DNA from: Leptotrichia sp. oral taxon 498 | GTDB lineage: Bacteria > Fusobacteriota > Fusobacteriia > Fusobacteriales > Leptotrichiaceae | Reading direction: 5' to 3' | Assembly: GCF_002240055.1 (NCBI RefSeq) | Contig: NZ_CP016753.1 | Location: 1,054,001 to 1,118,000, forward strand | Length of the DNA: 64,000 nt | Shown here: one piece after another, positions 14,856 through 60,077 of the stretch | Position numbering within the stretch: the first letter of the stretch is position 1 | Layout: each line of letters starts with the position of its first letter | Made by a program: the position numbers and the translations under genes | Notes under the pieces: model-generated | The model's input: the letters and a program-made list of their open reading frames with translations, nothing else | Databases searched by the model: none | Told to the model about the DNA's origin: nothing

Positions 14856-14939
14856 GCGAGAGTGGCGAAATTGGCATACGCACTAGACTTAGGATCTAGC
14901 GTCTTTGACATGTGGGTTCGAGTCCCACCTTTCGCACCA
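14856..14939 (+). tRNA. tRNA-Leu (anticodon UAG), prophage attachment target
   Basis: Acceptor GCGAGAG / CTTTCGC (one G-U pair), anticodon loop CTTAGGA in stem CTAGA/TCTAG, long variable arm, encoded CCA; 84 bases. Its last 11 bases lie in the 15-bp sequence repeated at the other end of the prophage. The gene stays intact because the phage restores the 3' end. Confidence 0.97.
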
Positions 14940-14943
14940 TAAA
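14929..14943 (+). repeat. attL: attL core (15-bp direct repeat)
   Basis: CTTTCGCACCATAAA, the tRNA-Leu 3' end. The same 15 bases recur at 62528. The phage arm CCACACG follows at 14947-14953. Confidence 0.92.
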
Positions 14944-14963
14944 AGCCCACACGAAATAGTGGA

Positions 14964-16319
14964 TTAGTTTAGTAATATCAGCACTTCTAAAGGTTGATAT
15001 TTTTTTATTTTTACCTTTTTTATCAACATTCTGAACATCAAAAATAAATTATACCTGTCTGTTTCGTCCATATTTTCAAGCACTTCTTTTAAAATTTTTA
15101 TATTGTCCATTTTTTCTTCGCTTATTGTCTTGTCTTTTATTATTCTATCAATATCATTTAAGGAATCTTCAAATATTCGTTTTCTATTTTTGAGTTCCTC
15201 AAGTTTATCATTTAATTCAAATTCATTTATCAATTCTTTTGCAAATAATTCTAAATATTTAGTTCTTTCTTTATCTATTTTTTTAATTTGTTTATCTATA
15301 TTCTCTCTATCTTTTGTATATTTTTCTAAATTAGGTTTTTCATTCAAAAACTCTAATTCTTTTAAGTTTAATAATTTATGTATTATAAACTTTTCAGCCT
15401 TATTCATAGATATTGCTTTTTTACATTTGTCACATCTATAATTAACACCATTTTTGAACATTTTACCGCCACAGGTACACTCTAATATACCTGTGAATAA
15501 AAACTTTCCTTCTTTACGTATTACACGTTGTTTAAATAACATTTGACGTTGTACTTCCCTAAAAACTTCTTCACTTATTAATGCTTTGTGATTTCCTTTA
15601 AATATCGTTATTTTTTTGTTTATTTTCACTTCTCCAGTATTAATATTATTTTCTTTTCTTCCGTACATCAGATTTCCAATATAAAATTCATTTTGCAAAA
15701 TCCATTTGACAGATGAAATGTTTTTGTTGAAAATATTTGCTGTTTCAGATAGACTTTTAGTATTTAAGTATGTGTTAAAAATGCTTATAACATCTTCAGA
15801 AGTTTCAGGATCTATTGTAATATTGTTGTGTTCATCTTTTTTATAACCAATCGGAATAGTTCCGCCTTGCCATATTCCGGCTTTGGCTCTAGCCCATTTG
15901 TTTGATTTCACTCTCATTGATATTTGCTTTCTTTCGTAATCTGCCAATACAGCGAATATTTGAAAGAACAGCATACCAGTAGGGGTTGTTGTATTTATTT
16001 CAGACTGTGAAATGGATACAAATTTTATATTGCTTTTTTGCAGCTCTAAAACAAAATTTAACATAGTTAAAGTTATACGAGAGATACGGGAGCTCTCATA
16101 AACTACAAGCACATCAAACGATTTCTTTTTGATTTCTTGCTGTAGTTTAAGAAAGCCTTCACGATTATCGTTGCCTCCGCTCTCCACATCCTGTATAACT
16201 TCCTTGAGCTTATAACCGCTCATTTTACAAAAATCTTCACATTTTCTTATCTGAAACTCAAGTGAACGCCCCTCTTCCTGAATTTCTGTACTAACTCTTG
16301 CATATATAATTGCTTTCAT
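14964..16319 (-). CDS. int: Large serine recombinase, phage integrase
   Basis: Catalyses attP x attB recombination through a serine-DNA intermediate. 451 aa with the family order: catalytic domain (about 1-145) with the nucleophile Ser in YARVSTE (residue 10), ESSRISR and an Arg-rich second motif; recombinase domain (about 150-260, GTIPIGYKKDE, SSVKWILQNEFYIG); zinc ribbon (about 280-310, C-x-C ... CDKCKK); then a coiled coil (about 315-410) that normally controls directionality. It is the last gene of the leftward early operon and lies against attL. The rebuilt attP is a dyad of about 48 bp, as serine integrases need. Confidence 0.95.
   Translation of the reverse strand: MKAIIYARVSTEIQEEGRSLEFQIRKCEDFCKMSGYKLKEVIQDVESGGNDNREGFLKLQQEIKKKSFDVLVVYESSRISRITLTMLNFVLELQKSNIKFVSISQSEINTTTPTGMLFFQIFAVLADYERKQISMRVKSNKWARAKAGIWQGGTIPIGYKKDEHNNITIDPETSEDVISIFNTYLNTKSLSETANIFNKNISSVKWILQNEFYIGNLMYGRKENNINTGEVKINKKITIFKGNHKALISEEVFREVQRQMLFKQRVIRKEGKFLFTGILECTCGGKMFKNGVNYRCDKCKKAISMNKAEKFIIHKLLNLKELEFLNEKPNLEKYTKDRENIDKQIKKIDKERTKYLELFAKELINEFELNDKLEELKNRKRIFEDSLNDIDRIIKDKTISEEKMDNIKILKEVLENMDETDRYNLFLMFRMLIKKVKIKKYQPLEVLILLN
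14974..15008 (+). terminator. Phage-supplied terminator for the tRNA operon
   Basis: Stem AATATCA / TGATATT followed by TTTTTTATTTTT on the + strand, 35 bases after tRNA-Leu and lying inside the 3' end of the integrase gene. It mimics the native terminator displaced to 62555. On the - strand it lacks a T run. Confidence 0.65.
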
Positions 16320-22401: not shown

Positions 22402-22860
22402 ATGAGTTATCAAATAGAAAAATTTTTGACAGAATTTTTGAATAAGAAAAATATGACTTTAACAGAATTTTCAAAAAAAATGGAAGTTACACATGTTTAT
22501 GTATCCAACATAAAAAACGGTAAAAAAACAGCTTCCAAGAAATTTGTTGAAAACTTAATAAGGAAATTTCCAGAGTGTGCAAAAAAAGAAGAAGAATTAA
22601 TAGCTATGTTAGAAAAAGATAAAAAAATTGAAAAATTAAAAAAATTAGAAAAACAAAGAAGGGAAACAATTGGCAAAAGCGAAGAACTTGACAGGATTTC
22701 AAGATTAAACAAGAGGGAGAGAGTACAACTAGATGAAGTTATGAATAGTGCAGCCTACTTTTTTAACGATAACAGTGTAAGCGACGAGGATAAGAAAAAA
22801 TTATACGATAGTTTACAAGAACTTTTTTTTGATGCTAAAATAAAAAATAAGAGAAAATAG
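22402..22860 (+). CDS. XRE-family phage repressor (ImmR-like)
   Basis: 152 aa. An HTH domain lies at residues 1-62 (MTLTEFSKKMEVTHVYVSNIKNGKK), followed by a charged coiled region and a C-terminal helical part. Immediately followed by an ImmA-type peptidase, as in ICEBs1-like elements where the protease cleaves the repressor. It is divergent from the leftward operon, so it is the best candidate to bind the TTGTAACT boxes. Confidence 0.85.
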   Translation: MSYQIEKFLTEFLNKKNMTLTEFSKKMEVTHVYVSNIKNGKKTASKKFVENLIRKFPECAKKEEELIAMLEKDKKIEKLKKLEKQRRETIGKSEELDRISRLNKRERVQLDEVMNSAAYFFNDNSVSDEDKKKLYDSLQELFFDAKIKNKRK

Positions 22861-26090: not shown

Positions 26091-26891
26091 ATGAGGGATA
26101 TAAGAAAAAAAGGTTGGTTCTGGGTTGAAAATGAACTAATAGATAGAACTGACTTGTCTTTTGAAGTCAAATCAATGTATATGATTTTAGCAAGGTTTGC
26201 GGACGCAGAAGGAAAATGCTTTCCGAGCGTTGAGAAATTAGCTGAAATTATAGGAAAAGATAAAAGAACGGTAATAAGATATATGAAAAAGCTGGAAGAA
26301 AAAGGATTAATTGAGAAAAAGAGAAGATTCAATCAAACGAACATTTATTATCTAAAAAATGTTGCTCTTAATAGTGACAAAATTGATAATGACAAAAATG
26401 ATAGTGACATAGTTGTCACTTCCCTAGATGACACAGGTGTCACTTCCGATAGTGACAAAAATGTAAATCTAAAAAAACACAATGAAAAAAACACAATTAA
26501 AAATACCCAATATAATATAAAAGAAAAAAGTAAAAAAGAAAAGACAAAAAGTAAAATTGAAGACTTTGTAAACAAACTTGAAAAATCAGACGAATACAAA
26601 GCCTTGATTTTAGAATACATAAAATATCGCAAAGAAATAAAAAAAACAATAAAGACAATAGCTCCTATTAACAAATTGTTGAAAGATTTTCCTGATTCCA
26701 AACGGCTTTCGGAAGCAATAGAAATCGCTAAAGAAAGGGAATGGACAGGATTAGAGCCTGAATGGGTAGAGAACTATAAAAATACAAAAAACGGAGGAAA
26801 TAGCAATGCAAAAGGTGTCAGATATAATAAAACAGAGGGTAGAAAGAATAAAGCTGGAGAAAGAAAACCAAACTACGACATTGAGTTTTAG
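26091..26891 (+). CDS. Phage replication protein with winged HTH
   Basis: 266 aa. Residues 1-90 are a winged helix (KKGWFWVENELIDRTDLS, LAEIIGKDKRTVIRYMKKLEEKGLI). A Lys/Asp/Thr linker with repeats of DND/SD follows, then a small domain ending LEPEWVENYK and a charged tail. This plan matches phage replication initiators paired with a DnaC-like loader, which follows and overlaps by 86 bases. Confidence 0.82.
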   Translation: MRDIRKKGWFWVENELIDRTDLSFEVKSMYMILARFADAEGKCFPSVEKLAEIIGKDKRTVIRYMKKLEEKGLIEKKRRFNQTNIYYLKNVALNSDKIDNDKNDSDIVVTSLDDTGVTSDSDKNVNLKKHNEKNTIKNTQYNIKEKSKKEKTKSKIEDFVNKLEKSDEYKALILEYIKYRKEIKKTIKTIAPINKLLKDFPDSKRLSEAIEIAKEREWTGLEPEWVENYKNTKNGGNSNAKGVRYNKTEGRKNKAGERKPNYDIEF

Positions 26892-29371: not shown

Positions 29372-29414
29372 TTGACAAGTTAGTCCCAATATGTTATAGT
29401 TATATGGGACTAAC
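29372..29414 (+). promoter_or_regulatory. Promoter and operator of cassette A
   Basis: TTGACA, 17 bases, TATAGT. A perfect 10-bp inverted repeat GTTAGTCCCA / TGGGACTAAC (29379-29388 and 29405-29414) brackets the -10, as expected for autoregulation by the AbrB-like protein encoded next. Confidence 0.85.
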
Positions 29415-29427
29415 GAAAGGAGAAGAA

Positions 29428-29598
29428 ATGGAAAAAAGAGATTTAAATATTTCTTTTTACAAAGCTGGAAACGGAACTGCAACTAGATTGACAGTACCTA
29501 TCACTTGGTTAAGAAAATTAGGGGTTACACCAGAAGACAGAACCGTTGAATTGTTTTTTGATGAAGAGAACAACCAGTTAATATTGAAAAAGAAATAA
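29428..29598 (+). CDS. AbrB/MazE-like DNA-binding protein
   Basis: 56 aa swapped-hairpin family: GNGTATRLTVPITWLRKLGV and VELFFDEENNQLILKKK. The start ATG 29428 follows AAGGAG. Such proteins act as transition-state regulators or antitoxins and bind palindromes as dimers; the operator is upstream. No toxin-like gene is obvious next to it; the 99-aa protein follows. Confidence 0.82.
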   Translation: MEKRDLNISFYKAGNGTATRLTVPITWLRKLGVTPEDRTVELFFDEENNQLILKKK

Positions 29599-29602
29599 AA
29601 AA

Positions 29603-29706
29603 TCTCCTAAAATCCTTTTAGTTAGGCTTTAGGAGAATACAGTATAAACTGTCCAACCAACTTTATTATACTGTATAAACTCCAAAAAATCAATATTTTT
29701 AGGAGG
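29603..29706 (+). promoter_or_regulatory. Structured leader RNA of the 99-aa gene (copy A)
   Basis: Three stems: TCTCCTAAA/TTTAGGAGA (29603-29636); TACAGTATAA/TTATACTGTA (29638-29675) with loop CCAACCAAC; and CTCC-A-AAAAAT/ATATTTTT-A-GGAG (29680-29705), which masks the ribosome binding site. Its counterpart before the second copy has different stem bases but the same plan. Confidence 0.65.
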
Positions 29707-29714
29707 AAATTTTT

Positions 29715-30014
29715 ATGACACTTAGACAAGAGCTAGGATTTGAAATTACAGAAAGTTTACTGGATGAACACAATCACAAGTTAAAATCAGCAAAAAAGGT
29801 GGTATTTGATTTATTAGAGGAAATGTATGAGATGTTGTCTAAAGAAAATTTGGATAAATTAATGGATTTGGAAGATGCTTTGGGTGAATATCATCAAACA
29901 ATTAAAAGAGAATACTATGAGGCTGGTTCAAACATAGACACATTGGTTCAAAGAAACGAAGAAAAAGAAGTCGCTGAAAAAGTGGCAAGAATTGAAAGAA
30001 AAAATATAGTATAA
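29715..30014 (+). CDS. Duplicated 99-aa phage protein (copy A)
   Basis: MTLRQELGFEITESLLDEHN..., helical, ending VARIERKNIV. A copy at 59017 differs at only three residues. Both precede antirepressor-type genes and both follow a small DNA-binding protein gene and a structured leader. No motif or family recognised. The AGGAGG site lies in the third leader hairpin. Confidence 0.8.
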   Translation: MTLRQELGFEITESLLDEHNHKLKSAKKVVFDLLEEMYEMLSKENLDKLMDLEDALGEYHQTIKREYYEAGSNIDTLVQRNEEKEVAEKVARIERKNIV

Positions 30015-30027
30015 TGGAGGATAAAGA

Positions 30028-30843
30028 ATGTACGATTTAAAAGTTATAAATGATGAAAGATTTCAAATATTCAGTAAAGAAAATTTAGGAAGTGTAAGAA
30101 CAATATTGGTGGATAATGAGGTATGGGTTTGTGCAAAAGATGTTTGCGATATTTTGGAAATAAAAAATGTTACTCAAGCTGTACAGAGATTGGATGAAGA
30201 TGAACGGTCTATGTTTAACATAGGTCGTCAAGGAAATACCAATTTTATTAATGAAAGTGGATTGTACGCTTTGATTGTAAGAAGCGACAAAAAGGAAGCA
30301 AAACCATTTAGAAAGTGGATAACATCAGAAGTTATTCCAGCAATAAGAAAAACAGGAATGTATATGACTGACGATGTATGGAACAGTATAATGAATGAAC
30401 CTGAAAAAATAGGAGAACTTCTAATTAATTATGGAAAAGTAAGACAAGAAAATGAAAATCTTAAATTTACTAATAAAGTTCAGGAACAGCAGATAATAGA
30501 ATTGCAACCGAAGGCATTATATTATGATTTGATTTTGCAATGTAAGGATTTATTAAGTACAACAATGATTGCTAAAGATTATGGAATGGCTGCAAAAGGA
30601 TTTAATAAAATGTTACATGAATTTGGAATCCAATATAACCAAAGCGGAGTATGGTTTTTATATCAAAAGTATGCAATTTACGGATATACACAAACAAAAA
30701 CAAATGCTTTTGTAAGAAGTGATGGAACACCTGACGGAAAACCGCATATGTATTGGACACAAAAAGGAAGAATATTCTTATACAATTTTTTAAAAGATAA
30801 AGGTGTATTACCAATAATCGAACAAGAAGAAATGGGGGCTTAA
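30028..30843 (+). CDS. BRO/KilAC phage antirepressor
   Basis: 271 aa. BRO-N domain in residues 20-112 (VWVCAKDVCDILEI, DERSMFNIGRQGN, ESGLYALIVRS, FRKWITSEVIPAIRKTG); KilAC domain at about 155-265 (STTMIAKDYGMAAKGFNKML, GRIFLYNFLKDKGV). Such proteins relieve repressor binding or regulate lytic genes. Ends cassette A together with a 79-aa ORF. Confidence 0.92.
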   Translation: MYDLKVINDERFQIFSKENLGSVRTILVDNEVWVCAKDVCDILEIKNVTQAVQRLDEDERSMFNIGRQGNTNFINESGLYALIVRSDKKEAKPFRKWITSEVIPAIRKTGMYMTDDVWNSIMNEPEKIGELLINYGKVRQENENLKFTNKVQEQQIIELQPKALYYDLILQCKDLLSTTMIAKDYGMAAKGFNKMLHEFGIQYNQSGVWFLYQKYAIYGYTQTKTNAFVRSDGTPDGKPHMYWTQKGRIFLYNFLKDKGVLPIIEQEEMGA

Positions 30844-30844
30844 A

Positions 30845-31084
30845 ATGGTAGATAAAGCAAAAATATTTTTACAATTATTTATTGAAGAAATGATACCTGA
30901 GACAGGGCAATGGTATGAAAAAATAGAAAAAGATGGAACAAAACTTGTCATTAATGATGAAGTGGCAGAAGAAATAGCAAACGATCCTGAATATAGTGAT
31001 AGATTATACGACGTTTTTACGAAAGAATTAGAAAAAATACTAAAAGAATATCCTGAAAAATGGTTTTTAAATGAATATAGATAA
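30845..31084 (+). CDS. Unknown 79-aa protein of cassette A
   Basis: MVDKAKIFLQLFIEEMIPET..., helical, acidic. Two bases after the antirepressor stop, so coupled. Unrecognised. Confidence 0.62.
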   Translation: MVDKAKIFLQLFIEEMIPETGQWYEKIEKDGTKLVINDEVAEEIANDPEYSDRLYDVFTKELEKILKEYPEKWFLNEYR

Positions 31085-31098
31085 CAAATAGTAAATGG

Positions 31099-31134
31099 AA
31101 TCACAGTTGTTGAACTAATGACTGTGATTTTTTT
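31099..31134 (+). terminator. Cassette A terminator
   Basis: AATCACAGT / ACTGTGATT then a T run. Cassette B begins 8 bases later. Confidence 0.85.
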
Positions 31135-31282: not shown

Positions 31283-31774
31283 ATGGAAAAAATAATAAAT
31301 GTTGCTCAATATATTTTTAATGAATATAAAAGAGTGACAGGAGAAATTATTGATGAAATGAAATTGCAAAAATTATTGTATTTTTCACAAAGAGAAACAT
31401 TTGCTATTTTAAATGAGCCTCTTTTTGATGAAGTGTTTGAAGGCTGGAAGTATGGACCTGTATCAAGAGAGGTACGGACTTCTTATACAACGGACGGAAT
31501 AAATTATGAAACAGAAGACATAAAAAGTGAAAGTAAATACATAATAAATAATGTAATTCAGGAATACGGAGCATTAGCATCGTGGAAATTAAGTGCATTA
31601 ACACACAAAGAAACTTCTTGGATGAATTCTCGAAAGGGACTTAAAAAGGAAGAAAACGGAAGGATTAAAATCCAAACCGAAGATATAAGAGAAGATGCAA
31701 AGAAAGTAAGACCTTATGACTATATGTGGGATATGTACTATGATGAATTTGATGACTATGAAGCGGTGGTTTGA
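31283..31774 (+). CDS. Panacea-domain (DUF4065/SocA-like) antitoxin
   Basis: 163 aa. The pattern INVAQYIFNEY..., EMKLQKLLYFSQ, FEGWKYGPVSREVR and ALTHKETSW matches Panacea/DUF4065, a family that neutralises diverse toxins. GGAGG upstream and its own promoter TATAAT about 30 bases before. One base overlap with the toxin gene. Confidence 0.87.
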   Translation: MEKIINVAQYIFNEYKRVTGEIIDEMKLQKLLYFSQRETFAILNEPLFDEVFEGWKYGPVSREVRTSYTTDGINYETEDIKSESKYIINNVIQEYGALASWKLSALTHKETSWMNSRKGLKKEENGRIKIQTEDIREDAKKVRPYDYMWDMYYDEFDDYEAVV

Positions 31775-32154
31775 TGGTAGGAAAAATAGTCAGATGTTTA
31801 ACTCAATACTACGATACAAGATTACATAGAAATTCAATCAAATCAAGACCTGCTTTAGTATTAAGAAGTCCTGAAAATGATGATTATGTAGTTCTTCCTA
31901 TTTCAACTATTCCAAACAGAATAAATGTAAATCCAGTATATGATATAGAAATAGATCCGTCAAAATTTCCCAAAATAAACTTGACTAGATTATCGTATAT
32001 TAGGACACATAGAATGGTTTCAATACCAATGCAACAGATAGATACAAGTGTTATAATAGGAGATTTGAAATCAGATTACGAAGAACTATTTTTAGAAATA
32101 GCGGAAAAAGTAGAGCAGTTTCATAATGAAGTTATGGAAGGGTTGTTAGAATAG
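31774..32154 (+). CDS. Candidate toxin of the Panacea pair, PemK/MazF-like
   Basis: 126 aa. VGKIVRCLTQYYDTRLHRNS, then SRPALVLRSPENDDYVVLPIST, resembles the PemK/MazF mRNA-interferase beta-barrel (usual P.LVL...Y..V.PISS). I take the ATG at 31774. Together with the Panacea gene this forms a type II toxin-antitoxin cassette. Activity is inferred only. Confidence 0.75.
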   Translation: MVGKIVRCLTQYYDTRLHRNSIKSRPALVLRSPENDDYVVLPISTIPNRINVNPVYDIEIDPSKFPKINLTRLSYIRTHRMVSIPMQQIDTSVIIGDLKSDYEELFLEIAEKVEQFHNEVMEGLLE

Positions 32155-37488: not shown

Positions 37489-39066
37489 TTGAATTTATTT
37501 GATAAGGCAGTAGGAGTATTTAATCCAGAAAAAGCATTAAAAATGGTTGGAGCAAGAGAAAAGCTAAAGCTGTTTAACCAAAATCAAAAAATAATGAATA
37601 AAGGTTATGGAGAACACGGGGCAAGTACCCGTAAAAAATCTTTGAGAGGATGGTTTGCTTCTCTAGGTGGAGTAAAGAATGATATTTATAACTACCGTGA
37701 AAAACTTGTGGCTCGTTCCAGAGATTTGTATATGGGAGCACCTTTGGCAAATGGAGCATTGAATACAATGAAAATGAATGCTGTTGGTTCAGGGCTAAAA
37801 TTAAAGTCAAGTATTGATTCAGATATTATAGATTTATCTGAAAATGAAATAGAAGTGTTAGAAACAAAAATTGAAAAAGAATTTAATTTGTGGAGCAATT
37901 CTAAAATAGATCAAACAGGTTTGCTTAATTTTTATGAAATTCAAGATTTAGTTTTTTTGACAACGTTGTTAAATGGAGAATGTTTTATTCATTTGAATTA
38001 TTTTGAAACTCCAGAAAATCCGTATAGCTTGAAATTATCCATAATTGAGCCTGATAGAGTAAATACTCCAAGCAATAAAATGAGCGACACTTCTATTGTT
38101 CAGGGAGTACAATTGGACAAAAATGGGCGTGTTAACGGTTATTATATTCAAGAGCATAATCCAAATGATGAAATCAGAGGCATGAATCAGTATAAATATG
38201 TAAAAATGTATGGAAACGAAAATCAGTTAAATATAATTCATTTGACAACTGCGGAGCGTCCAGGACAGGTGAGGGGTGTACCGATATTAGCTCCTGTAAT
38301 GGAAAGCTTGAAACAGCTCGACAGATACACGAATGCAGAATTAACGAGTGCAATCATCAGCAGTATGTTTACAATTTTTATTGAATCAGCTGATATACCT
38401 CAAACAAATCCAGGGGATTTATCGAACGTCGGACAAAAAGATGCCATAGCAAATGAAGAATCTGGAACGCTGGAACTTTCAAGCGGTGCAATAGTATCTC
38501 TTAACAAAGGCGAAAAAGCGACATCAGTGAATCCAGCAAGACCTAATGCACAATTTGACCCATTTATGACAGCTATAATACGGCAAATTGGAAGCAGCTT
38601 GGGCATTCCTTATGAACTTATGATAATGCACTTTACAAGCAGTTATTCGGCGAGTAGAGCAGCTTTATTAGAAGCGTGGAAGACTTTTAGAAAAAAGCGT
38701 GAATGGTTTGCAAAAAATTTTTGTCAACTTATTTATGAAGAGTGGCTAAGAGAGGCTGTTTTGCTTGGAAGAATAGAAATAAAAGATTTTGAAAATGACA
38801 TTTTGATTAGAAAAGCATACAGTAATGCAATTTGGAGTGGAACTTCACAAGGACAGTTAGATCCTATAAAAGAGGTTAATGCGGCAATTTTGAGAATAAA
38901 TGCTGGGTTATCAACGAGAAGCCGTGAAACTATTGAATTAAATGGGGGAGATTTTGAACAAAATATAAAAATATTGGCAAAAGAACAAAAAATAGCAAAT
39001 GAGAAAGGAGTGATTTTGGATGGGACAATCTATACCGAACCACCAAACGATGAACCAGAGGAATAA
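37489..39066 (+). CDS. Phage portal protein, lambda gpB family
   Basis: 525 aa. Forms the dodecameric DNA port. Family features include RDLYMGAPLANGALNTMKMN (about 75-95), TTAERPGQVRGVP and SYSASRAALLEAW. The TTG start follows AGGAGGTGG. The 3' end overlaps the protease gene by 47 bases. Confidence 0.93.
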   Translation: MNLFDKAVGVFNPEKALKMVGAREKLKLFNQNQKIMNKGYGEHGASTRKKSLRGWFASLGGVKNDIYNYREKLVARSRDLYMGAPLANGALNTMKMNAVGSGLKLKSSIDSDIIDLSENEIEVLETKIEKEFNLWSNSKIDQTGLLNFYEIQDLVFLTTLLNGECFIHLNYFETPENPYSLKLSIIEPDRVNTPSNKMSDTSIVQGVQLDKNGRVNGYYIQEHNPNDEIRGMNQYKYVKMYGNENQLNIIHLTTAERPGQVRGVPILAPVMESLKQLDRYTNAELTSAIISSMFTIFIESADIPQTNPGDLSNVGQKDAIANEESGTLELSSGAIVSLNKGEKATSVNPARPNAQFDPFMTAIIRQIGSSLGIPYELMIMHFTSSYSASRAALLEAWKTFRKKREWFAKNFCQLIYEEWLREAVLLGRIEIKDFENDILIRKAYSNAIWSGTSQGQLDPIKEVNAAILRINAGLSTRSRETIELNGGDFEQNIKILAKEQKIANEKGVILDGTIYTEPPNDEPEE

Positions 39067-46076: not shown

Positions 46077-49000
46077 GTGGCAAAAAATTTGGAACTGAAC
46101 ATAGTTCTGGGTGCGGCAGTAGCTAGTGCTATTAGTGGAATGAGCCAAGTTGCAAATGCTTTAAAAAATACGACGAAATCTGTCAAAGAATTTGAAAAAG
46201 AAATCAAAAGCATGGAAAAAGCACAAAAAGCGTTTCAAAATATGGACAAGGCTCGTGACGGATTAAATAAAATTAATTCGGAGTATAAAAAGGCAGCTGA
46301 ACATTTGCAAAAATTGAAAGCCGAATATGAAAGAACTGGAAGCAGTAATAAACAACTGGCTAAGGAAATAGAACAGGCTGAAAAAAATGTTGGAAAATTG
46401 AATAAGCAAAAAGAACGACAACAGCATGTATTTGAAGCTGCAAGAAGCAAGATAGAAGCGGAAGGCGCTAGTTTATCTAACTACAGAAACAAGGTTCAGG
46501 AAGTTGAAAAAGAAATCGAGAAAATGAACAAACTGAAAGAAGCTCAAAAAAGATACGATGCTAGACAAGAAACTGTTGGAAAAATGAAAGACTTTGGAGA
46601 TAAGCAAATAATGCAAGGTATGGGAATGGCTGGAGCTTTGGCTGTTCCTGTTAAACTGGCAGTTGATCTAGAAAATGCTCAAGCAGACTTAAAAAAAGTT
46701 GCTGATTTTAGTTCTAAAAAAATGGAAGATGGATTTTACAAAGCTATGAGAAACTTTAGTGAAAACAGTCCATTATCTCAAGTAGAATTATTTCAAATTG
46801 CAGGAGCAGGGGCTCAAGCGGGAATAAAAACAGATGAATTGGAAAGATATACTAAAGATGCAGCTAAAATTAAAGTTGCTTTTGATATGAACACTGAGGC
46901 AGCAGGAAACTTTTTGGCGAAAACAAGGGCACAACTTAATTTGGATCAGAATGGAGTAATGCAGTATGCTAATGTAATTAATTATTTAGCAAACACCGTG
47001 GCTGTCACAGCTCCAGAAGTAGCAGATATTTCAAGCAGAGTCGCAGGATTAGGTGGAATGGCTGGTATTTCCAAAGAAGGAGTTGCGGCATTAGGAGCAA
47101 GTTTAGTATCATTTTCTGTTCCATCTGAAGTTGCGGCTACTGGATTAAAAAATATATCACTAGGATTAATGGCTGGAAGTTCGGCAACAAAAAGTGCAAG
47201 AGCAGCTTTCAAATCTTTAGGATTAGACGCAGAAGATGTAGCTAAAAGAATGACAAAAGACGGAGAAGGAACTTTAGTTGATGTTTTTCAAAGAATAAAA
47301 AAACTTCCCAAGGATGTTCAAGCTGCGACACTTAAAAATTTATTCGGTAAAGAATCTATTCAATCAGCATCTGAATTAGCAAACCATATTGATGATGTTA
47401 GTGCGAACATGAAAAAAGCTCATGACAGAGCAAAAACAGCCGGAAGTGTCGATAAGGAATACAACCAAAGATTAAAAACAATGGGAAATGCTTTTTCAAC
47501 TTTAAAAAATAGAGTTGTAAACATGGGTGTAGATTTAGGTTCGGCATTAGGTCCAAGTTTAGTTCAAGTTGCAAATTCTATTGGTCCACTTATTACTAAA
47601 TTTTCTCAATTAATACAAAAACATCCGCAATTAACTGCAAATATTCTAAAAGCTGTAGCGGGATTTGCAGCATTTAAAATAGGTATTGGTGGATTAGCTA
47701 AAGGATTTGCACCAGTTTTTAGTGGAATATCTAAAGGAATTCATATATTTGATGAGTTTAAAGCGGCTGGAAGTTTTGCTGAAGGATTTAAAACGGCATT
47801 TCCGACAATATCTAAAATTGGCTCAATGTTCAAAAAAGTAGGCTTGGCGATCAAAGCGGCTTTTATGGCAAATCCTGTTATTTTAATAATTGTTGCAATA
47901 GTGGCTGTTATAGCAATTGTTGTAGTTTTATATAATAAATGTGCTTGGTTTAGGAATGGAGTGAATGCGATATTTAAAGCAGTAGCTAACTTTATAAAAC
48001 AAGTCTGGCAAGGGATCAAACCAACTGTAATGAACGTGATAACAGGAATAAAAAATATTGTTAAACAAGGTGTTGATTTTATTAAACTAGTTTGGAAAAT
48101 AATTAAACCGACAGTAATGGAGGTGTGGAATGCTATTAAGATGGCAGCAAGTGTTGCAATGAAAGGAATAACGATACTTGTAAAAGCATCTATCGCTGTT
48201 TTAAAAGCTATATGGAGAGTTTTGAAACCTGTTGTGGTTGCTGTTTGGAATGCAATCAAAGCAGTTGTGCTTGTGGTGATTAAAATAATAGCTGTATATA
48301 TTAAGACATACATTAATATTATAAAAGTGGCTTGGAAAGTATTGACAATAGCTGTAAAGGTTGTATGGACCGTGATAAAAGCTGTAATTTTAGTTGTTAT
48401 TGTTGCTATTGTCGTTGTAATCAGGACAAATATTATGATAATAAAAACTATATGGAAAGGTTTAGTTGCAGTTGCACGATTTGTTTGGAATGCAATTAAA
48501 GGTGTGGTTATTCCTGTATGGAATGCTATTAAATCAACGGCAATAGCATTGTGGAACGGTTTGAAATCCGGAATAACAGCAGTAGGTTCATTCTTTAAAT
48601 CAACCTGGGAAGGAATAAAAGGAGCTGCAATCGCTGTATGGAATGGTATTAAATCAGCATTTGATGCAGTTGCTTCTGGATTGAAAAGTGCAATCAGTGG
48701 TGTTGTAAAATTTTTCACGGATAAATGGAACGGATTGAAAAATATGGTTTCAAAAGGACTTGGAGCAGTTGGAGGACTTTTAGGATTTGGGAAAAATGCA
48801 GCAGGAACTAACTACTGGAGTGGAGGACTTACAACAGTAGCAGAACGTGGAGCTGAATTAATTCAAATACCTGGTAAACCAGCATTTTTAGCGGAACACG
48901 AAATGTTATTGAATTTACCTCGTGGTACTCAAATATTGAATAATCGTGAAACTAGAAATAGTTTTAGAGATAAAATTAGTGAACTAAAAGAGAGAATGTC

Positions 49001-56181: not shown

Positions 56182-57135
56182 ATGGAATTGAAATTAATCA
56201 AAGGGAGAAATGCACAGATATATTTAGAGTATCTTAACAGTAGCATAGCAAAGAACGAAGCAACTAAAAACACGACTTACAAGACATATCTTAACAACAT
56301 GAAACAGTTTGTTAAGTATATCAAGAAGTATGAAAACAATCGTTACTTGCTTAGTAAAGATACTTTGAAAATTATTGTGAGCGTATTGGAACGATATATT
56401 CGTTATTGCAGGGAAGTGAAAGGGAATAATGCTAGAACTATCAATAATAAGATAACAGCGATTAGTAGCTTTTACATTTGGTCAGTTAAGCGTGATTTAA
56501 TAGCAACACATCCATTTAGGGATAAATTAGACCGTTTGAAAGTTACAGATGTGGAAAAACGGAGAAATAGTTATTATCTTACAAACAAAGAGATAATAGA
56601 GATAAATATCAAAATGGAAATGGACAAACGGCATGATTTACAAGACAGGATTATATTTAATTTGATAATCGACACAGCTTGTAGAATTACTGCTTTGCAG
56701 TCAATAAAACTAAAAAATATTGACTTGGAGAATGGGATAATAAGTGGAATCGTGGAAAAGGAACAAAAGATTGTAGAGTTTGCGATATTTGAAGAAACAA
56801 CAGAACTAATAAGGGAGTGGTTGAGATGTAGAAATGACAGCGTTGAATACTTACTAGTGACTAAATACAACGGAATATTTAAGCAAATGAGCAAAAGCAC
56901 AATAAGAGATAGAGTTAGAAAAATTGGAAAGTTAGTCGGAATAGATAATTTATATCCGCACTCACTAAGAAAAACAAGCATTAATCTTATTGCAAAAACA
57001 GCTGGGATTGACTTGGCAAGTGAGTTTGCAAATCACAGTGGAACAGATGTAACTAAAAAGCACTATGTTAAGAAAACAAGTGCGAGAGATAGAAAAAACA
57101 AACTGTTAGAAATTCGCAAAAAAGCAGGATTTTAA
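56182..57135 (+). CDS. Tyrosine recombinase, likely fibre-switching invertase
   Basis: 317 aa. N-terminal core-binding domain (about 1-120). Catalytic part with Arg in TACRITALQ (about 173), HSLRKT (His/Arg near 254-257), His near 278 (FANHSG) and nucleophile Tyr in KKHYVKK (about 288). GGAG precedes the ATG. It is far from the phage ends, beside the fibre segment, so it probably inverts it, as Rci does in plasmid shufflons. Confidence 0.88.
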   Translation: MELKLIKGRNAQIYLEYLNSSIAKNEATKNTTYKTYLNNMKQFVKYIKKYENNRYLLSKDTLKIIVSVLERYIRYCREVKGNNARTINNKITAISSFYIWSVKRDLIATHPFRDKLDRLKVTDVEKRRNSYYLTNKEIIEINIKMEMDKRHDLQDRIIFNLIIDTACRITALQSIKLKNIDLENGIISGIVEKEQKIVEFAIFEETTELIREWLRCRNDSVEYLLVTKYNGIFKQMSKSTIRDRVRKIGKLVGIDNLYPHSLRKTSINLIAKTAGIDLASEFANHSGTDVTKKHYVKKTSARDRKNKLLEIRKKAGF

Positions 57136-58673: not shown

Positions 58674-58713
58674 TTGACTTTTTACACGGGATAATATATA
58701 ATATATTCACGGG
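58674..58713 (+). promoter_or_regulatory. Promoter of cassette D with CACGGG repeats
   Basis: TTGACT, 17 bases, TATAAT. CACGGG lies at 58685-58690 and 58708-58713, direct repeats around the -10; likely sites of the RHH protein encoded next. Confidence 0.8.
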
Positions 58714-58730: not shown

Positions 58731-58904
58731 ATGAAAAAAATCGGACGACCAAAAAGTGATAATCCAAGAAATATAAGATTGGAAATTACTTTGAATAAAG
58801 ATGAAAATGAAAAATTGAAAAGAATGTCAGAAACTTTAAAATTAAGTAAGACAAGTACAATTGTAAAAGGATTAGAACTTTTGGAAAAAGAATTGGATAA
58901 ATAA
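58731..58904 (+). CDS. Ribbon-helix-helix (CopG-like) regulator
   Basis: 57 aa: GRPKSDNPRNIRLEITLNKD, then ENEKLKRMSETLKLSKTSTI. Basic start and RHH fold. Takes the same position in its cassette as the AbrB-like protein takes in cassette A. Confidence 0.82.
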   Translation: MKKIGRPKSDNPRNIRLEITLNKDENEKLKRMSETLKLSKTSTIVKGLELLEKELDK

Positions 58905-58908
58905 AAAA

Positions 58909-59009
58909 ATACCCTCTATCCAAAATGAACAGAGAGTATATAGATAATAGATATCTAACCAATACTATTATACTATATATTCTCTTAAAAAACAAATATT
59001 TTAGGAGGA
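58909..59009 (+). promoter_or_regulatory. Structured leader RNA of the 99-aa gene (copy D)
   Basis: ATACCCTCT/AGAGAGTAT (58909-58939); TATATAGATAATAG/CTATTATACTATATA (58937-58979) with loop CTAACCAAT; CTCTTAAAA/TTTTAGGAG (58982-59007) over the ribosome site. Same plan as 29603-29706, with different paired bases. Confidence 0.65.
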
Positions 59010-59016
59010 AAATTTT

Positions 59017-59316
59017 ATGACACTTAGACAAGAGCTAGGATTTGAAATTACAGAAAGTTTATTGGATGAACACAATCACAAGTTAAAATCAGCAAAAAAG
59101 GTGGTATTTGATTTATTAGAGGAAATGTACGAAATGCTGTCTAAAGAAAATTTAGATAAATTAATGGATTTGGAAGATGCTTTGGGCGAATATTATCAAA
59201 CAATTAAAAGAGAATACTACGAAGCTGGTTCAAATATAGACGCATTAGTTCAAAGAAACTGTGAAAAGGAAGTTGCTGAAAAAGTGGCAAGAATTGAAAG
59301 AAAAAATATAGTATAA
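59017..59316 (+). CDS. Duplicated 99-aa phage protein (copy D)
   Basis: Three residue changes from the copy at 29715 (H to Y near 58, T to A and E to C near 75-82). See copy A for the context. Near identity of DNA as well suggests recent cassette exchange or copying. Confidence 0.8.
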   Translation: MTLRQELGFEITESLLDEHNHKLKSAKKVVFDLLEEMYEMLSKENLDKLMDLEDALGEYYQTIKREYYEAGSNIDALVQRNCEKEVAEKVARIERKNIV

Positions 59317-59328
59317 CGGAGGATAAAA

Positions 59329-60030
59329 ATGGAATTAATTAAAGTATTAGTGGAAAATCAAAACGGAGTATTAGTAACAACAAGTAATAGAGTGGCACAG
59401 GAATTGGGAGTAAAACATTATGATTTACTTGAGAAAATAGACGGATATATAAGTAAATTTAGTTCAACGGAACTTTCCGTTCAATTCTATATACCTAGTA
59501 ATTACAAGGCTTTGAATGGTAGGACAGTAAAAAATTACTTAATCACGGAAAAAGGAATTGCACAATTGGTTGGAGGATATAATGCGTCAGTACCTATAGC
59601 ATTTGATTTAAACGTGGCATACATCAATGAATTTGAGAAAATGAAAAAGGCATTAAAACAACCAAAGCCAATGTCAATACCTGAATTAATAGTAATGCAA
59701 GGGCAATGGATGGTAGAAGCTGAAAGCAGAATGAATAATATCGAGAACAATGTAATTGGACTTGCAAACACTATTGAGAATAATGACAAGAGCATAAAAA
59801 GATTGGAAAATAATCAAAGAAGAACAGTAACAAGCAACCATTTAACAGTAATAGCCTATGCTAATATAAAAGGAATAAAGCCAAAATCATATCACGCACC
59901 TTCGATAGGAAAGAAAGCGACTAAGATATGCAGGGAAAAGGATTTATTAATAGGAACAACGGTTGACAGCCGATACGGACTAATAAATACTTATCCTGTT
60001 GAAGTTTTAGATGAAATATTTTTTGAATAA
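59329..60030 (+). CDS. Rha/ORF6C phage regulatory protein
   Basis: 233 aa. N-terminal Rha-type domain (about 1-105: VTTSNRVAQELGVKHYDLLEKI, TEKGIAQLVGGY), coiled middle, ORF6C end (about 155-230: LTVIAYANIKGIKPKS, ICREKDLLIGTTVDSRYG). Occupies the place that BRO/KilAC holds in cassette A. Confidence 0.88.
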   Translation: MELIKVLVENQNGVLVTTSNRVAQELGVKHYDLLEKIDGYISKFSSTELSVQFYIPSNYKALNGRTVKNYLITEKGIAQLVGGYNASVPIAFDLNVAYINEFEKMKKALKQPKPMSIPELIVMQGQWMVEAESRMNNIENNVIGLANTIENNDKSIKRLENNQRRTVTSNHLTVIAYANIKGIKPKSYHAPSIGKKATKICREKDLLIGTTVDSRYGLINTYPVEVLDEIFFE

Positions 60031-60041
60031 TAATTAACACT

Positions 60042-60077
60042 AAATCACAGTCATTAATTTGATTGTGATTTTTTTGT
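60042..60077 (+). terminator. Cassette D terminator
   Basis: AAATCACAG-TCATTAATTTGA-TTGTGATTT then a T run; the same as cassette C's. Confidence 0.85.

What the first reader, a model, noticed from the sequence alone, without database searches (positions are those of the whole stretch)
29372..30843. A repeated three-gene plan: small DNA-binding protein, structured leader, near-identical 99-aa protein, antirepressor
Cassettes at 29.3-31.1 and 58.6-60.1 kb share this order. The first gene differs in fold (AbrB-like against RHH), the last differs in family (BRO/KilAC against Rha/ORF6C), but the 99-aa middle protein differs by only three residues. Each cassette has its own sigma-70 promoter with repeats bracketing the -10 (GTTAGTCCCA inverted; CACGGG direct). 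This looks like a system with swappable input and output parts around a fixed core. The 99-aa protein has no family I recognise. Two such units in one prophage suggest a role in phage-phage or induction decisions. The sequence shows the layout; the function is inferred.
Basis: partly seen in the sequence, partly recalled or inferred. Interest (0 to 1): 0.88.

Follow-up and report, generated by a model that had tools for sequence, protein, structure and literature searches.

The report
Phage switch with hidden antisense RNA
Two gene cassettes in a Leptotrichia prophage each carry, unannotated between their first and second genes, a predicted ~60-base antisense RNA gene like the sar RNA of Salmonella phage P22; the same layout recurs in about 30 places across Fusobacteria and probably keeps antirepressor (anti-immunity) genes in check.

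Summary
The two cassettes are real. Each runs: autoregulated promoter, small DNA-binding gene, leader, 99-aa gene (3 residues different), antirepressor, terminator. The "structured leader" is a predicted gene on the other strand: a sigma-70 promoter (TTGNNN-17 nt-TA[T/C]AAT) and a ~60-nt RNA with two stem-loops, whose terminator U-run lies on the stop codon of gene 1. That is the layout of P22 immI (arc / antisense sar / ant), read beside it as a control. A covariance model found the RNA in prophages of several Fusobacteriales genera; all 29 scored loci keep promoter, spacing and terminator. Most are followed by an antirepressor (BRO-N, pRha, AntA, KilAC, or true P22_AR_N). Nine gene-1 homologues without a neighbouring antirepressor lack the RNA. 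The 99-aa protein is not the fixed core: other cassettes have 41-96-aa proteins there, or none. Operator and antisense sequences fall into specificity groups; A and B are mutually foreign. Best reading: P22-immI-like secondary-immunity modules ("ant morons") with orthogonal control. Unlike sar, the RNA does not cover the next ribosome site; a conserved hairpin hides that site instead. No expression data exist here; function is inferred.

The parts
29372..29400 (+). Cassette A promoter, TTGACA-17-TATAGT
   Evidence: 11/12 consensus match
29379..29414 (.). Cassette A operator: inverted repeat GTTAGTCCCA (29379-29388) / TGGGACTAAC (29405-29414) bracketing the -10
   Evidence: perfect 10-nt arms; most relatives with an intact gene 1 have a repeat at the same place with another sequence
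29428..29598 (+). Gene 1 of A: 56-aa AbrB/MazE-like DNA-binding protein
   Evidence: phrog_2329 2.5e-16; Pfam MazE sub-threshold; SD AGGAG upstream
29596..29658 (-). Predicted antisense RNA of A, ~63 nt: 5' stem-loop plus terminator stem-loop, U-run on the gene-1 stop codon
   Evidence: (z -3.0)
29665..29693 (-). Antisense promoter of A, TTGATT-17-TATAAT
   Evidence: 10/12 match; same geometry in 29/29 scored loci
29680..29706 (+). SD-sequestering hairpin (CTCC...GGAG) before the 99-aa gene; its loop holds the CAA that is the antisense -35 on the other strand
29715..30014 (+). 99-aa helical-hairpin protein, copy A
   Evidence: AlphaFold2 pLDDT 84, two helices; no Pfam family, no significant PDB or BFVD match
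30028..30843 (+). Antirepressor A: Bro-N + KilAC (ANT)
   Evidence: Pfam 3.7e-26 and 2.4e-32
30845..31084 (+). 79-aa protein of unknown family, last gene of cassette A
31100..31134 (+). Terminator-like hairpin ATCACAGT...ACTGTGAT + T-run ending cassette A
   Evidence: sequence; not found by the short-loop scan
58674..58702 (+). Cassette B promoter, TTGACT-17-TATAAT
   Evidence: 11/12 match
58685..58713 (.). Cassette B operator: direct repeat CACGGG (58685-58690, 58708-58713) bracketing the -10
   Evidence: same in L006, which has the identical gene 1
58731..58904 (+). Gene 1 of B: 57-aa ribbon-helix-helix-like protein
   Evidence: phrog_876 transcriptional repressor 1.9e-10; CopG weak
58902..58960 (-). 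Predicted antisense RNA of B, ~59 nt, terminator stem 58939-58909 + U-run
   Evidence: (z -5.5)
58967..58995 (-). Antisense promoter of B, TTGTTT-17-TATAAT
58980..59008 (+). SD-sequestering hairpin before the 99-aa gene of B
59017..59316 (+). 99-aa protein, copy B
   Evidence: 97% identical to copy A
59329..60030 (+). Antirepressor B: pRha N-terminal domain + C-terminal domain shared with Bro-N antirepressors of relatives
   Evidence: Pfam 1.4e-13
60042..60071 (+). Intrinsic terminator of cassette B

Best explanation
Each cassette is a self-contained antirepressor control unit that works like P22 immI (arc / sar / ant). The forward promoter makes one mRNA for the small DNA-binding protein, the 99-aa protein and the antirepressor. 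The DNA-binding protein turns that promoter down by binding repeats around its -10 (inferred from the repeats). A second promoter inside the leader, on the opposite strand, makes a ~60-nt two-hairpin antisense RNA that ends on the stop codon of gene 1 (predicted). It should pair with the leader and lower translation of the 99-aa and antirepressor genes. The RNA does not reach the next ribosome site, so the likely route is to leave the conserved hairpin that hides that site in place, with duplex cleavage or promoter interference also possible. In a lysogen both brakes keep antirepressor low. An incoming or freshly excised phage genome without matching repressor and RNA makes a burst of antirepressor that acts on resident repressors. 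Because operator and antisense sequences fall into separate groups, A and B in one prophage are controlled independently.
For: Antisense unit: TTGNNN-17-TA[T/C]AAT plus a 55-72-nt RNA with two stem-loops and a U-run on the gene-1 stop in 29/29 scored loci. In the 64-kb window only three promoter-terminator units of this kind exist on both strands, two of them these; 0 in five shuffles. RNA folding z -3.0 to -5.5. 19 distinct terminator stems, 99% self-complementary against 64% when arms are swapped between loci. The -35 TTG is invariant in all 26 aligned leaders although it lies in a variable hairpin loop. A model trained on 8 leaders finds the RNA in 22 of 96 Fusobacteriales genomes, and nearly all of the loci examined lie in front of antirepressors with Pfam support; in L028 and L031 the antirepressor is P22_AR_N (6e-32, 7e-28). 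Also in Fusobacterium phage phiFN37. Nine gene-1 homologues without an adjacent antirepressor lack it. P22 as deposited has the same geometry: arc 14861-15022, sar 15021-15090 on the other strand with its terminator on the arc stop, ant from 15091. Repeats bracket the -10 of gene 1 in nearly all loci with an intact gene 1. Duplex energies: A antisense on A -106, on B -27; B on B -95, on A -22 kcal/mol. Sar function: PMC12197685, PMC11016777; 'ant moron': PMC2629481.
Against: No transcript was observed; promoters and terminators are predictions in AT-rich DNA, and the loci are related rather than independent trials. The antisense RNA shares no recognisable sequence with sar and does not cover the next SD. 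Computed SD pairing hardly changes when antisense binds (mean 0.83 to 0.87), and for cassette A the ribosome-at-stop model moves the wrong way. No divergent mnt-like gene lies beside the cassettes. L056 puts the same module before an autotransporter-like gene, and L051/L053 have no AbrB gene 1.
Confidence: 0.78

Rival explanations
1. Cis-acting translational attenuator only: the leader hairpins couple translation of the 99-aa gene to termination of gene-1 translation, and no antisense RNA is made.
For: The three-hairpin layout and the alternative pairing of P1 3' arm with P3 5' arm are conserved with compensatory changes; a ribosome at the gene-1 stop lowers SD pairing in 20 of 29 loci.
Against: Does not explain the invariant 17-nt spacing of TTG and TA[T/C]AAT on the other strand, the CAA fixed in a variable loop, or U-runs placed on the minus strand. 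The effect is reversed in cassette A. Both may act together.
Confidence: 0.12
2. One reading: a fixed 99-aa core protein that links a sensor-like DNA-binding protein to an antirepressor, probably by direct binding.
For: All 9 homologues of the 99-aa protein lie between such partners; near identity of copies A and B.
Against: Cassettes with the same RNA lack it or carry unrelated or barely related 41-96-aa proteins; the small protein is not tied to one antirepressor family.
Confidence: 0.06
3. Toxin-antitoxin pair: the AbrB/MazE-like or RHH protein is the antitoxin of the 99-aa protein.
For: Gene-1 folds are common in antitoxins (general knowledge); autoregulated operon layout.
Against: The 99-aa gene matches no toxin family, is absent from many cassettes that keep gene 1, and nearly identical gene 1 goes with 99-aa subfamilies only about 45% identical (A against L016, L017).
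Confidence: 0.04

Closest known systems
Salmonella phage P22 immI region (arc / sar / ant; 'ant moron')
   Same: Small autoregulator gene with operator at the promoter; oppositely oriented ~60-70-nt two-hairpin antisense RNA whose terminator ends on the stop codon of the first gene; antirepressor next; own terminator; cassette B inserted in the late region like an ant moron (PMC2629481).
   Different: Gene 1 is usually AbrB-like, not Arc; no recognisable sequence similarity of the RNA; antisense RNA stops ~45 nt before the next SD instead of covering it; extra SD-hiding hairpin; usually a small extra gene before the antirepressor; no mnt; antirepressor usually Bro-N, pRha or AntA type.
Phage P1/P7 immI operon (c4 RNA / icd / ant)
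   Same: An RNA that represses a small protein gene followed by an antirepressor gene in one operon.
   Different: c4 is a processed 77-base RNA (title cited in PMC8546580) of the operon itself; here the RNA comes from the opposite strand with its own promoter and terminator. Similarity of Icd and the 99-aa protein was not tested.
Antisense-RNA control of plasmid copy number (CopA, RNAI type)
   Same: Short two-hairpin countertranscript with own promoter and terminator; specificity groups (from general knowledge).
   Different: Controls phage antirepressor, not replication.

Membership tests
P22 immI / ant moron | Antirepressor gene | tested here: met
   Bro-N+KilAC in A, pRha in B; P22_AR_N itself in L028 and L031
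P22 immI / ant moron | Small DNA-binding gene first in the operon with operator at the promoter | tested here: met
   Repeats bracket the -10 in A, B and nearly all relatives with intact gene 1; binding itself not testable
P22 immI / ant moron | Gene 1 is Arc-like ribbon-helix-helix | tested here: inconclusive
   B resembles RHH (weak CopG match; fold not decisive); A and most relatives are AbrB-like instead
P22 immI / ant moron | Antisense RNA gene between gene 1 and the next gene, terminator on the gene-1 stop | tested here: met
   Predicted in 29/29 loci, same geometry as annotated sar; expression not testable
P22 immI / ant moron | Antisense RNA covers the ribosome site of ant | tested here: not met
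   Antisense start is ~45 nt upstream of the next SD
P22 immI / ant moron | Divergent mnt repressor gene | tested here: not met
   Upstream neighbours are a dUTPase gene (A) and a lysin-like gene (B), both on the same strand
P1/P7 immI | RNA repressor processed from the operon's own transcript | tested here: not met
   Predicted RNA is on the opposite strand with its own promoter; no Rfam match
Type II toxin-antitoxin | Second gene belongs to a toxin family | tested here: not met
   No Pfam or NCBIfam toxin match for the 99-aa protein

The most novel reading that the evidence does not exclude
A widespread, undescribed family of sar-like antisense RNA genes controls antirepressor modules throughout Fusobacteriales prophages. 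RNA and operator specificity diversify into mutually orthogonal groups, so several such switches can coexist in one prophage and define an RNA-based layer of superinfection immunity, while small helical proteins of new families ride along as co-regulated effectors.
Probability: 0.55. Interest if true: 0.75.

Novelty: new variant of a known kind. Interest (0 to 1): 0.64.

Why it matters
P22 sar, described in 1987, is the classic antisense RNA transcribed against an antirepressor operon, and I found no report of the same layout outside enterobacterial phages. Here it recurs in about 30 prophage cassettes of another phylum with a different DNA-binding fold and several antirepressor families, so it looks like a general or repeatedly evolved solution. 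It gives concrete sites to test, explains why antirepressor genes come with small leader genes, and offers orthogonal two-layer switches. The RNA model is also a handle for finding antirepressor modules in unannotated genomes.

Tried and rejected
99-aa protein against Pfam, NCBIfam, PHROGs, PDB sequences and BFVD folds: nothing significant; phages and plasmids by tblastn: no match. Weak Fusobacteriota hits of the 99-aa search (L011, L012, L019-L021) lie inside unrelated chromosomal genes and were dropped. Pure translational attenuator: tested by constrained folding, effect mixed and reversed in A, so kept only as a rival or co-mechanism. Rfam at loose threshold: only chance matches. Second RNA model R2 had no consensus pairs, because MAFFT cannot align the variable hairpins, and was not used. 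Gene-1 family alignment was too diverse for a viral-contig scan; single-protein scans gave 4 loci, one new positive (L061). Profile comparison of 99-aa and 96-aa families is suggestive only (probability 49%). Single-sequence fold of B gene 1 did not show the RHH strand.

Full report
Setting. The window lies at 1054001-1118000 of a 2.15-Mb genome. A same-genus genome in the search has a contig of the same length (89,863 bases) as NZ_KI271332.1, Leptotrichia sp. oral taxon 879, and carries the same locus, so the host genus is Leptotrichia. The window holds a prophage: a recombinase/integrase at 14964-16319 next to a tRNA cluster, a repressor-like gene at 22402, replication initiation at 26091, portal at 37489, tape measure at 46077. 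Cassette A lies in the early region after RusA and a dUTPase gene; cassette B lies after a lysin-like gene.

The observation. Both cassettes exist as described. The 99-aa proteins differ at three residues. The operators are present and bracket the -10 of strong promoters. Start and family corrections are in the observation check. The best alignment between A and B is one block, A 29652-30030 / B 58954-59331, 91% identical. Identity by segment: operator and gene 1 52%, antisense RNA body 57%, antisense promoter to ATG 77%, 99-aa gene 94%, antirepressor 54%. The conserved block thus begins at the antisense promoter.

What the leader is. Between the gene-1 stop and the 99-aa ATG lie ~115 nt. On the minus strand they read TTGATT-17-TATAAT (A) or TTGTTT-17-TATAAT (B), then ~60 nt with two stem-loops, the second followed by a U-run that lies on the gene-1 stop codon (TAAAAAA on the plus strand). 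The second hairpin is a good terminator on the minus strand; on the plus strand no T-run follows it in A or B. Units of a TATAAT promoter followed within 30-85 nt by a terminator occur three times on both strands of the 64-kb window, twice here, and never in five order-1 Markov shuffles. Folding z-scores are -3.0 to -5.5.

Relatives. All nine members of the 99-aa family seen (A, B, L003, L004, L006, L009, L010, L016, L017; identity down to ~36%) lie between a small DNA-binding gene and an antirepressor. Positions in the prophage vary: early after dUTPase or RusA genes, late before baseplate genes, or after a lysin. UViG_645951860 also has one early and one late cassette (L017, L004). A covariance model from eight leaders (R1) found the element in 11 of 33 family and 22 of 96 order genomes, including places without the 99-aa gene. 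Every one of the 29 loci scored keeps the promoter with exactly 17 nt spacing and the two-hairpin RNA ending on the stop; phiFN37 of Fusobacterium necrophorum is among them, and a 30th locus (L061) has TATACT as its -10. Terminator base stems are of 19 kinds, 99% self-complementary against 64% with swapped arms. In L010 the terminator hairpin is degenerate and its middle gene carries a stop; it is not among the 29.

What follows the RNA. Pfam gives Bro-N, ANT/KilAC, pRha, AntA and P22_AR_N in the downstream gene, with P22_AR_N at 6.3e-32 and 7e-28 in L028 and L031; L049 is a weak pRha match below the curated cut-off. The small gene before it is 99 aa in Leptotrichia, 96 aa in four Fusobacteriaceae loci (a shared Y-Y/F-E-x-G-x-N region suggests distant kinship; hhalign probability 49%), 77, 78, 67 or ~41 aa elsewhere, or absent (L027, L028, L031, L057, L037). 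The 99-aa protein is therefore optional. When it is absent, the antirepressor itself takes the start codon behind the SD hairpin.

Controls. Nine homologues of gene 1 without a neighbouring antirepressor (six Clostridioides phages, two Fusobacterium nucleatum phages, one ParA-linked contig) lack the antisense unit. P22, as deposited, shows arc 14861-15022, sar 15021-15090 on the other strand with terminator 15021-15058, sar promoter 15097-15125, ant from 15091 and the Arc operator within the arc/ant promoter: the same geometry.

Mechanism. Shown by sequence: two promoter-like sites per cassette, operator repeats, terminators, an SD-hiding hairpin in nearly all leaders, module exchange. Inferred: repression by gene 1, antisense repression in trans, a secondary-immunity role. 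In P22, sar pairs with ant mRNA and lowers antirepressor (PMC12197685), and immI deletion lowers lysogeny (PMC11016777). Here the antisense RNA stops ~45 nt before the next SD, so direct blocking is unlikely. Constrained folding gives mean SD pairing of 0.83 free, 0.72 with a ribosome at the gene-1 stop and 0.87 with antisense bound; this fits antisense opposing translational coupling but is weak, and cassette A does not follow it under the ribosome constraint. Duplex energies separate specificity groups {A, L016, L017}, {B, L006}, {L003, L004}, {L009}, matching the gene-1 and operator groups.

Novelty. The literature searches held no paper that combines Fusobacterium prophages with antisense control of antirepressors, and one on AbrB, antirepressor and antisense RNA returned nothing with this layout by title and abstract. 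P22 immI, called the ant moron in PMC2629481, is the known kind. The Fusobacteria modules are a new variant: different gene-1 fold, non-homologous RNA, different target geometry, extra small gene. The searched libraries are incomplete, so priority is not proven.

Noticed in passing
L056 (G033:C86:3742-3853): AbrB-like gene and a matching antisense unit lie in front of a 500+ aa autotransporter-like repetitive surface protein gene instead of an antirepressor, suggesting that a bacterium or element reused the phage switch.
   Followed up: partly
window 29286, 31143, 58591 and 23 fetched loci: A repeated element GGACAATGRCAAYTRAAT followed by ACTGTGA stands just upstream of cassettes and other moron-like genes in Leptotrichia prophages; origin unknown, perhaps a moron boundary or terminator remnant.
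   Followed up: partly
window 26070-25985, - strand: A third minus-strand promoter-terminator unit (TTGTGT-17-TATAAT, hairpin GCACTCCTAGGAGTGC + T-run), next to a palindrome ATCTTGTGTT...AACACAAGAT just before the replication initiation gene.
   Followed up: partly
window 31283-32154: Panacea/SocA-like gene (1.5e-17) directly followed by a sub-threshold PemK/MazF-like gene (7.6e-4) after cassette A; the second gene also occurs near the cassette in L003/L005. Looks like a toxin-antitoxin pair.
   Followed up: no
window 56182-57135: Second, tyrosine-type integrase (phrog_1, 1.9e-30) inside the late region after the tail genes; possibly a tail-fibre inversion recombinase, though no strong inverted repeats were found around it.
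   Followed up: partly
L037 2501-2671 (OR492271.1): The AbrB-like gene 1 of phiFN37 is annotated 'toxin SymE', probably a fold-based misannotation.
   Followed up: no
L051 and L053 (G022, G021): Antisense unit follows a gene that is not AbrB- or RHH-like, and the downstream gene is not a recognised antirepressor.
   Followed up: no
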